Positions 38,893 to 41,800 of a DNA stretch of 64,000 bases are shown in pieces. Both the position numbers and the translations under genes were made by a program. Under the pieces are notes generated by a model, which searched no databases, was not told where the DNA came from, and was given only the letters and a program-made list of their open reading frames with translations. Numbering within the stretch: the stretch's first letter is position 1; each line of letters opens with the position of its first letter. This stretch comes from Cloeon dipterum (lineage: Eukaryota; Arthropoda; Insecta; Ephemeroptera; Baetidae), in contig NC_088788.1 in NCBI RefSeq assembly GCF_949628265.1, positions 25,344,335 through 25,408,334 of the forward strand. The letters run 5' to 3'.

Positions 38893-41800
38893 CTACCTCG
38901 GTGAACTCTCGGTTGGTGACAGAAGGGGTGGTGGCTGATCGGGCAAATTGGCTGTTCCTCGGCCGTCTGTCAGGTATCCCATCATGCCTGATGGCGCTTC
39001 TGCAAACAAACGCAACGTTAAAGGACGATTAAAATTTAAGTCAGGCCTAACAAACCTAAGTATTTTTGTTCGTTTGGGCCTCCCAAGAATAGGTCGTGTT
39101 TCTGGTCTCTAAACTCTGCCCAGCCAGGACACTTGTCCAGCATGGCTGCGATTTTCTCTGCTAGCTGAGGGTTGCTTGTGTTCCTCAGGGCCTTGAGGGC
39201 GTGCACCAGGTGCGCCTTGTGCGCAGGCGACAGCACCGATGACGATGACTGCAGCAGCCCTAGCAAGTATGGCACTAGCTCGATTTGTACAGCCTGAAAA
39301 ATAAAGAAGTGCTAGATTAGCTCAAGCCGCAGGTATTTTACCAAGAAATGAGAAAAAATAAATAAGCCAGTCTTAAAATTTAAGGATTACCTGTCTCACA
39401 ATAGGTTCTGACCCCATTGCACTGAACCAGTTACCCAAGGTCTCGCACGCCGGTCCCTGAGCCTGAGGGTACTTCTGCATGGCCAACTTGAGAGCAGAAA
39501 CGCAGTCAGTGTTTCGGAGTGCTTCAACACAGCCCTGCGATTTATTTATCATTATTAATACATCACACATTGCTCAAATTTCTGTACTGCGTACTTGACT
39601 CTTTGAAAGGTGCAGGAACACTTTTACGGCACCAATTGTCGCCTGATTGTTGCCTTTGTTGACACAGCTGACCAGAGTTTGAACTAACTTGGGCATGTGG
39701 CCCAGACTTGGAAGGACGTCTGCGAGCTTTGGTTGGGTGGCCAGGAGGCTCACTAGCGAAACTATGGCCAGGTCCATTTTGGAACTCTAAAAAGGCGATT
39801 AAAATTTTGAAAGTCCCAAGAGATTTATTAAATACCTCTCCTGACTCTCTGGACATCAGGTCAATGGTAGTATCTAACAGCTCTCCCAAGAAATGCTTAG
39901 GTCTCTTGAGACTCCATCCAGGGTTGGTTGAGAACAATCTCAAGTAAACTCCACCGACTACCAGCTCGTCTGACTGATCTACTTGATAGTTAAAATCGGT
40001 GTCTGGCGATTTCCACTCAGCCTTGCCGTCCAACCTCTGCCTCTTTGAGAACCTAAAGAGCGAAAGTTAATTACAAGAAGTTTATAGAATTTTAAATAAA
40101 AAAAATAAGAATCATATTTAGACATCAGAGCCAGCCGCGCCGCGCCGCGCCAGCCGACTCAGCCGGTCATTTTCTCGAGCCGCCAGCCGCCGACCTTTAA
40201 TCGGCTCAGCCAGCTGAGCCGCGCCAGCCAGCCACCCATAATTTTTATCTTTTCCATTTTTCATATCACGTGCCCCAAAGCTAAAAAAAACTTAGCACCG
40301 TTCTCTGTTTCATGGAAATTTTTTCTGAAGTAGTTTGTACTCAGTAAGTCGACTGTCTTAAAAAACGCTGTTTTTCTTGTAAGTTGCAAATTTATGTAAC
40401 TTGCAACCGCATTTTTCCTCCGCAAAACCGCAATTTTTTCGGAAAAAACCCCCCAATGTGCAAAAAACTGTTTTAAGCGTTTTTTCTGCAATTTAGAGCA
40501 TTTTTTTAAATAACACATGCATTTTTATGGAAAATTCTCATGATGGATAACAAAAAACAGGGATTTTTACAAAATCAGTATAAAAGCCACTGATTGTTTC
40601 ACTAAGAGTCTAAACATTTTGACTCTTCGATCATCGCAAATTTCCAAAATTTCAGCTTTTTACGGCGCGAAATATGACTTTTAGGGGTTAAAATCTGAAA
40701 AATGCGGGAGACCCCAAAACTGTGGGTTTGTTGCCAGCTGATTTTTTGCGCATTTTGAAATTGGCGAACCCTGTTCGCAACGTGTTTTTCCAATATGAAA
40801 ACTGATTTCCCGCCTAATTCGCTTCTTTCATCTTAAAATTTCATTGCTTCTTCATTCCTAAAATATAAACTTAAATTATGGCCATTTGAAAGGAAAAACA
40901 AAAATGTAATACAAAAAACTTAATTTTAACATTACTTTGTGGTCCATTTTATAGCATACTTATAGCTTACCAGGGCTCCCCAATTTTGCAATGTGCAAAA
41001 ATTAACCACTATTTTTTGCGTATAATACCAGCGGTAAAATCCTCCAGATTTAGGTTTTTCTGCATTTTTTTCGAAAAACCCAAAAATGGTCACATTCCGT
41101 GTCAAAAGTCAGAAATTTTGGAAAATTACGATGACTCTTGAGTGTTAAAATTTTCGGTCTTTCAGAGGAATTAACCCACCGATTTTTTAAAAATCCCTAC
41201 TTTTGGTCATCCAGCATCATGAGCATTTTTGAAGTTCTATAAAAATGCATGTGATTCAGAAAAAAAACGCAAAATTTCATTAAAAAAACTCTAAAATATT
41301 TTTTAGCAATGCAGTTTGTTTTTTTCCGGAAAAATGCGGGTTTTTGCGATCGCTGCAGTTTACAGCGTGTTATACGCATCGCGTGTAAGTTGTTAGTTGC
41401 GATTTTTGAGTTATGCAGTCTTAAAAAGCACATGAGCCGGCTGCAAGCCAGCCGCCAGCCGAGCCGATGAAATTTTGCCAGCCAGCCGCCGATGTCTGTA
41501 TTGACGGCTCGGAGCCGGAAAGCCAGCCGCCGATCAAAATGCGGGCGGCTCAGATGTCTAATCATATTGATTAAAAAACGAGGCCAGACTAACTCCTGTT
41601 GTAGTTCCTTGAGATGTCTCTCAAGCGAAGTTCTCTGGTCAGTTCCCCAGACTAGTTCGGGATTTTCGTGGTTTCCATCATACAGCGCCATCGCCATTCT
41701 AGGCGTAGCTAGGATCATGTCAGACAACGAGGCAGGCAGAAAGCGAGAGAGCACTAGTTTCACCCTCGGACCCGAGAGTCGGTCGGCCGAAAGCCTTGAA

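What the first reader, a model, noticed from the sequence alone, without database searches (positions are those of the whole stretch)
40112..41567. Complete foldback-type transposon inserted in a small RME-8 intron
A 1,444-bp segment has matching inverted ends (TTAGACATC...GATGTCTAA), an exact 6-bp flanking duplication TCATAT, GC-rich subterminal blocks and long imperfect inverted arms, so most of the element can fold on itself. It encodes no transposase-like frame. Removing it and one duplication leaves an intron of about 91 bp, the size of its neighbours. The intact duplication suggests a fairly recent insertion. A 6-bp duplication is uncommon and does not let me name a superfamily; this may be an undescribed family.
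Basis: seen in the sequence. Interest (0 to 1): 0.7.

Follow-up and report, generated by a model that had tools for sequence, protein, structure and literature searches.

The report
Non-autonomous hAT transposon in an intron
A 1,442-base mobile DNA element without genes of its own sits in an intron of the RME-8 gene; it belongs to a family of many copies that bears the marks of hAT-type cut-and-paste transposons, so it is a new example of a familiar kind.

Summary
The insertion is real, but its ends were placed one base too far out. Copies elsewhere in the same genome fix the element at 40119-41560 (1,442 bp, TAGACATCAGAGCC...GGCTCAGATGTCTA), flanked by an 8-bp, not 6-bp, duplication (ATCATATT). 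It is one of at least 25 near-full-length places; its 14-base end occurs 93 times, reversed control 0. Exact 8-bp duplications of different sequence flank 19 copies (plus the window); two other insertions have uninterrupted empty sites. YRYR stands at positions 3-6 of the duplication in 11 of 19, a bias published for the hAT transposase hATx-6. Ends of two of three hAT kinds in this genome match in 10-11 of 15 bases, and one complete hAT there has an 8-bp duplication and GC-rich subterminal repeats. The internal arms do fold (z -7.8). Best reading: a recently multiplied non-autonomous hAT family, moved by a transposase supplied in trans. No autonomous partner with the same ends was found. So the 'uncommon 6-bp duplication, unnamed superfamily' is resolved; whether the family is already listed is open, since no repeat library could be searched.

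The parts
40111..40118 (+). [quoted passage not shown]
   Evidence: length fixed by the other copies
40119..41560 (+). the whole non-autonomous element, 1,442 bp
   Evidence: complete copies stop matching at or within a few bases of these ends (query 6-8 to 1449-1454 in most) and their duplications start exactly there
40119..40132 (+). left terminal inverted repeat TAGACATCAGAGCC (13 of 14 bases match the right one)
   Evidence: TAGACATCNGAGCC found 93 times in the genome, reversed control 0
40119..40238 (+). left GC-rich subterminal block with GCCAGCC/AGCCGCC repeats
   Evidence: 69% GC and motif positions; left ends of 12 copies aligned
40421..40689 (+). left inverted arm (element 303-571)
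   Evidence: 69% to the right arm; fold
41076..41348 (-). right inverted arm (element 958-1230)
   Evidence: fold
41439..41560 (+). right GC-rich subterminal block; its GCCAGCC repeats lie on the same strand as in the left block
   Evidence: a 30-base piece of this block found 47 times with up to 3 mismatches, reversed control 0
41547..41560 (-). right terminal inverted repeat TAGACATCTGAGCC (read on the minus strand)
41561..41568 (+). [quoted passage not shown]

Best explanation
It is a non-autonomous transposon (a large MITE-like element) of the hAT superfamily. A hAT transposase made by another element recognised the TAGACATC ends and probably the GC-rich subterminal repeats, cut the element out of a donor site and joined it to a target opened by an 8-base stagger; gap repair left the ATCATATT duplication on both sides inside an RME-8 intron. 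The internal inverted arms make most of the middle self-complementary but need not take part in transposition. Shown: ends, 8-bp duplications, copy number, empty sites of two other copies, target bias, fold, and a similar design in hAT elements of this genome. Inferred: the transposase, the role of the subterminal repeats, and the cut-and-paste chemistry (from Hermes and Kat1 as described in PMC4763223, passages seen).
For: 8-bp duplications: one search has 14 of 19 end pairs exact, one search has 3 of 6 exact; (up to 3 mismatches in the ends, at most 2 in the duplication, identical duplications counted once) lists 21 pairs, 18 exact; with the window 19 exact. Empty sites: the joined flanks of L016 match L038, L042 (twice) and L044 without the element, those of L060 match L068, L072, L076 and L032; that is 2 of 19 junctions tested, against fetched loci only. 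Target bias: YRYR at positions 3-6 in 11 of 19 against 5.3% of window 4-mers and 5.0% in flanks, P about 5e-10 (the motif was read off these same sites, so this P is too small); 17 of 19 depart at most once. [quoted passage not shown] A hAT element in the same genome (L078+L047, C5) has a PF05699 domain (E 2.4e-13), ends TAGAGCACTGTGCGG, subterminal ACCGCA-type repeats and an exact 8-bp duplication GTGGAAAC; a second hAT end is TAGAGACCTGCGCGG (L050). These match the family's end in 10 and 11 of 15 bases.
Against: No hAT transposase gene with these ends was found: of 13 PF05699 hits only one, L052, lies within 10 kb of any of the 93 exact ends (1.4 kb; next 12.4 kb), and that end belongs to a separate copy (L028) beyond the hAT's own end. 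The end match beyond TAGA is only suggestive (6 and 7 of 11; shuffles reach it in 5% and 1.6%), and a third hAT kind (L056/L057) matches in just 5 of 15. Eight of 25 end pairs lack an exact duplication (L028, L029, L037, L040, L043, L059, L062, L063). Only 4 of 19 duplications fit the Ac-type nTnnnnAn fully and none the Buster-type nnnTAnnn. The GCCAGCC repeats lie on one strand at both ends, so the two ends are not mirror images.
Confidence: 0.87

Rival explanations
1. A non-autonomous Mutator-like element (MULE): these also make 8-9 bp duplications, can have long or foldback inverted ends and subterminal repeats, and are active in other animals.
For: MULE transposase genes are in the genome (9 hits), some in a repeat 99.9% alike over 4.3 kb. 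Muta1 of Aedes makes 8- or 9-bp duplications and has subterminal tandem repeats (PMC5225508, passages).
Against: None of the 9 MULE hits lies within 170 kb of an exact family end, and the two MULE copies fetched hold no TAGACATC and no GCCAGCC on either strand (their own ends lie outside what was fetched). The exact duplications are 8 bp, none 9. Muta1 shows little or no target preference, this family a clear one. The inverted ends are about 14 bp; Muta1's are 145 bp.
Confidence: 0.06
2. A non-autonomous P-type or other element with 8-bp duplications (P, Merlin).
For: P-type transposase genes are present (18 hits), two of them in a repeat 99% alike over 3.9 kb; that P elements give 8-bp duplications is recalled.
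Against: None of the 18 hits lies within 23 kb of an exact family end; the two P-type copies fetched hold no TAGACATC (their own ends were not established). Merlin was not searched.
Confidence: 0.05
3. A foldback (FB-like) element with 6-bp duplications of an undescribed superfamily.
For: Internal inverted arms and a strong fold.
Against: The duplication is 8 bp in each exact case. The arms do not reach the ends. Two related members (L034, L036) keep the ends but show no arm match of their own at E 1e-5; against this, one search shows one arm of the window copy matching the opposite strand of L036's place at 71%, so a weakened arm may remain there.
Confidence: 0.02

Closest known systems
hAT superfamily (Hermes, hobo, Ac; hATx-6 of Hydra)
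   Same: 8-bp duplications, short inverted ends starting TAGA, subterminal repeats, YRYR bias at TSD sites 3-6 as reported for hATx-6 (PMC8721813, passages)
   Different: no transposase; T at site 2 and A at site 7 are only weakly favoured (15 of 36 each on the symmetrised count of 18 duplications)
hAT MITEs such as Mar and the BuT2 MITEs of Drosophila (PMC3517528, PMC3942097; passages)
   Same: non-autonomous, no coding frame, short inverted ends, 8-bp duplications, recently multiplied
   Different: longer (1.4 kb against 610 bp for Mar and 532-927 bp for BuT2 short copies); Mar has CAG(G/A)GGTAGGC ends and nnnTAnnn duplications; here there are internal inverted arms and very GC-rich subterminal blocks
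The hAT elements of this genome (L078+L047 with L052, L050, L056/L057)
   Same: TAGA ends; for the first, 8-bp duplication and GC-rich subterminal repeats; ends 10 and 11 of 15 alike in two of three kinds
   Different: other end letters at several positions and another repeat motif; not the direct source of this family
Muta1 family of MULEs (PMC5225508; passages)
   Same: 8-bp duplications possible, subterminal repeats
   Different: 8 or 9 bp duplications, 145-bp inverted ends, little target preference

Membership tests
hAT superfamily (non-autonomous member) | 8-bp target site duplication | tested here: met
   19 exact 8-bp duplications (plus the window); 8 of 25 end pairs without an exact one
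hAT superfamily (non-autonomous member) | short inverted ends beginning YAG, resembling hAT ends of the host | tested here: met
   TAGACATCTGAGCC; 10 and 11 of 15 with two hAT kinds, 5 of 15 with a third; beyond TAGA only suggestive. The YAG rule is recalled
hAT superfamily (non-autonomous member) | target bias like that of hAT transposases | tested here: met
   YRYR at sites 3-6 in 11 of 19, the bias reported for hATx-6
hAT superfamily (non-autonomous member) | an autonomous element with the same ends and a hAT transposase | tested here: not met
   none of 13 PF05699 hits was found in an element with these ends; not required of a non-autonomous family, and the partner may be lost, diverged or missing from the assembly
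hAT superfamily (non-autonomous member) | mobilised by a hAT transposase | not testable with these tools
   needs a transposition assay
Buster family of hAT | nnnTAnnn duplications | tested here: not met
   0 of 19
Ac family of hAT | nTnnnnAn duplications | tested here: inconclusive
   4 of 19 have both bases; 15 of 36 each on the symmetrised count of 18
MULE | 8-9 bp duplications without target preference and long inverted ends | tested here: not met
   no 9-bp case, clear preference, ends about 14 bp
MITE | no coding frame, many copies, conserved ends and duplications, usually under about 800 bp | tested here: inconclusive
   met except the size, 1,297-1,451 bp in the 17 copies aligned (no frame); the usual size limit is recalled
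Foldback transposons | long inverted repeats reaching the ends | tested here: not met
   arms are internal (303-571 and 958-1230 of 1,442), about 69%; the definition is recalled

The most novel reading that the evidence does not exclude
The family can pick up host gene DNA: two places (L070, L075) have its left end followed by about 3 kb of shared DNA (89% alike) with a TAZ zinc finger gene (domain seen in L070), and unrelated DNA beyond the first 8 bases outside the end. If the missing other end lies further on, this would be a hAT family that carries and spreads host genes without coding for its own transposase.
Probability: 0.1. Interest if true: 0.4.

Novelty: new member of a known kind. 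Interest (0 to 1): 0.2.

Why it matters
It turns an apparently odd 6-bp, unclassified element into an ordinary hAT passenger, and shows how one base shared between flank and element at each end can mislead a single-copy reading. The family is a recently multiplied series of insertions, useful for dating and for finding its transposase; it is not a new mechanism.

Tried and rejected
Autonomous partner: PF05699 (13 hits), the transposase of the nearest hAT as query (11 matches at 5 loci), P-type PF21787 (18 hits) and MULE PF10551 (9 hits) gave no element with the family's ends; distances from the 13, 18 and 9 hits to the 93 exact ends were computed. Ends with mismatches were not used for that: with up to 3 mismatches an 18-base end pattern gives 818 places against 323 for the reversed control, so many are chance (list cut off). 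Two further TAGA...CTG candidates in hAT loci (L049, L053) were not followed. Merlin and other 8-bp superfamilies were not searched.

Long end-to-end copies (L058 4,821 bp, L059 3,460 bp, L032 3,134 bp) hold DNA unrelated to the element and no frame above 177 aa. L070/L075 looked like a longer, coding member; the coding part found is a TAZ zinc finger (E 4.9e-9 in L070) of a gene region also present elsewhere without exact family ends, and the other end was not found, so capture is unproven; 7 of the 8 bases just outside the end agree between the two, which speaks for duplication rather than two insertions.

Host: nematode (TTAGGC) and insect (TTAGG) telomere repeats 0 hits; nematode SL1 RNA 0 hits, but no control genome rang either. 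Host not identified. An orthologous empty RME-8 intron could not be sought: no relatives are held. No repeat library (Repbase, Dfam) was available; exact-string literature searches gave 0 papers.

Full report
Observation. The segment reads as described, apart from its exact ends. Searching the window's own genome (190.1 Mb, 10 contigs, five of them 33-43 Mb) with 40112-41567 gave 116 matches; 25 places including the window cover at least 1,300 of the 1,456 query bases, and only 40 of 796 candidates were scored, so the count is a lower bound. Matches of complete copies begin at query base 6-8 and end at 1449-1454 in most rows, and the duplications of those copies begin exactly at query bases 8 and 1449, that is, at 40119 and 41560. 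The element is 1,442 bp and the duplication is ATCATATT, 8 bp.

Duplications. Of 19 end pairs with exact 8-base ends found in L009-L044, 14 have an exact 8-bp duplication, none longer; the five without are L028, L029, L037, L040, L043. Of six further pairs in L058-L063, three are exact (L058, L060, L061) and three not (L059, L062, L063) (a second pairing in L058, with an upstream TAGACATC that lacks the rest of the end, is left out). Allowing up to three mismatches in the ends and at most two in the duplication, and counting identical duplications once, 21 pairs remain, 18 exact; the window makes 19.

Empty sites. The joined flanks of 19 insertions were compared with the fetched loci and the window only. 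Two have uninterrupted relatives: L016 in L038, L042 (twice) and L044, and L060 in L068, L072, L076 and L032. The alignments, made for L038, L042 (one place) and the four relatives of L060, run through a single copy of the 8 bases, with one or two mismatches in it for L060. L036 and L068 hold the same insertion in duplicated flanks. The window's own empty site could not be tested.

Target. At positions 3-6 of the duplication 11 of 19 are YRYR and 17 of 19 depart at most once; the background is 5.3% in the window and 5.0% in flanks. The motif was seen in the same data, so the computed P of 5e-10 overstates. The report on hATx-6, found afterwards, describes the same bias at sites 3-6 (PMC8721813, passages). 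The Ac-type nTnnnnAn (PMC8961557, passage) fits 4 of 19 fully; the Buster-type nnnTAnnn (PMC3517528, passages) fits none.

Relation to hAT elements of the genome. PF05699 gives 13 hits. One (L047), joined with its upstream stretch L078, is an element with TAGAGCACTGTGCGG on both sides, exact duplication GTGGAAAC, ACCGCA-type subterminal repeats and a hAT dimerisation domain. L052 carries a relative of it with the same right end. L050 ends in TAGAGACCTGCGCGG, L056/L057 in TAGAGCGTATTC. The family end matches these in 10, 11 and 5 of 15 bases; beyond TAGA, shuffles reach the match in 5%, 1.6% and 95%. So two of three hAT kinds resemble it, suggestively. Of the 13 hits only L052 lies within 10 kb of an exact family end, and that end belongs to another copy.

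Family. TAGACATCNGAGCC occurs 93 times, reversed control 0; a 30-base piece of the right subterminal block 47 times with up to three mismatches, control 0. Nine of the exact ends lie on C3 8.79-8.94 Mb, where the two fetched (L076, L077) share their flank, so not all are independent. Of 17 full-length copies aligned, ten (window included) form a subfamily with mean pairwise identity 96.1% (93.6-98.3%), the window's nearest being 97.7%; five others form a second group at 92.3%, 82-85% from the first; L034 and L036 stand apart. With the intact duplication this supports a fairly recent insertion; no rate was applied.

Anatomy. The outermost blocks are 69% and 63% GC; GCCAGCC occurs ten times, all on one strand, five at each end. 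The arms 303-571 and 958-1230 are 69% complementary, and similar arms are found in 15 of 17 copies (not in L034 and L036 at E 1e-5, though one search shows one arm of the window copy matching the opposite strand of L036's place at 71%). Folding is beyond 60 shuffles (z -7.8). No frame above 120 aa and no Pfam match above its cut-off.

Host gene. RME-8 is confirmed on the minus strand by PF19432 (E 2.3e-24 and 4.9e-18) and GYF_2 (E 5.8e-9) at 45-50 kb. The two exon pieces beside the element gave no Pfam match; I assign them to RME-8 from strand, order and a recalled resemblance to human DNAJC13. Joining the flanks gives in-frame stops, so the element lies in an intron. The splice sites are not certain; the intron without insert is about 77-103 bp by hand reading.

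Verdict. A non-autonomous hAT family, most likely moved in trans by a hAT transposase not identified here. The finding's odd feature, a 6-bp duplication, is a boundary error. New member of a known kind; low interest.

Noticed in passing
L070:347-4001 and L075:3466-7001: A left end of the family is followed by about 3 kb of DNA shared at 89%, with a TAZ zinc finger in L070; beyond the first 8 bases outside the end the two differ. Capture of host DNA or duplication next to an insertion.
   Followed up: partly
G000 C3:8792498-8935241 (L076, L077 and unfetched ends): Nine exact family ends in 143 kb; the two fetched share the flank CTTCCATT, which points to duplication of a segment carrying one insertion.
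   Followed up: no
L062:201-1597: Both ends are right ends and the 8-base flanks are reverse complements of each other: it looks like a head-to-head inverted duplication of a locus rather than one element.
   Followed up: no
L079/L080 and L081/L082: A MULE-bearing repeat 99.9% alike over 4.3 kb and a P-type repeat 99% alike over 3.9 kb, with open frames at the domain: other DNA transposons that look young in this genome.
   Followed up: partly
L078+L047 (G000 C5:29276554-29280787): A 4.2-kb hAT element with exact 8-bp duplication GTGGAAAC; its relative in L052 ends about 0.5 kb from a copy of the present family.
   Followed up: partly
L051:1895-3237: A tandem array with a period of about 173 bp, units about 98-99% alike, starting about 160 bases after a hAT domain.
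   Followed up: no
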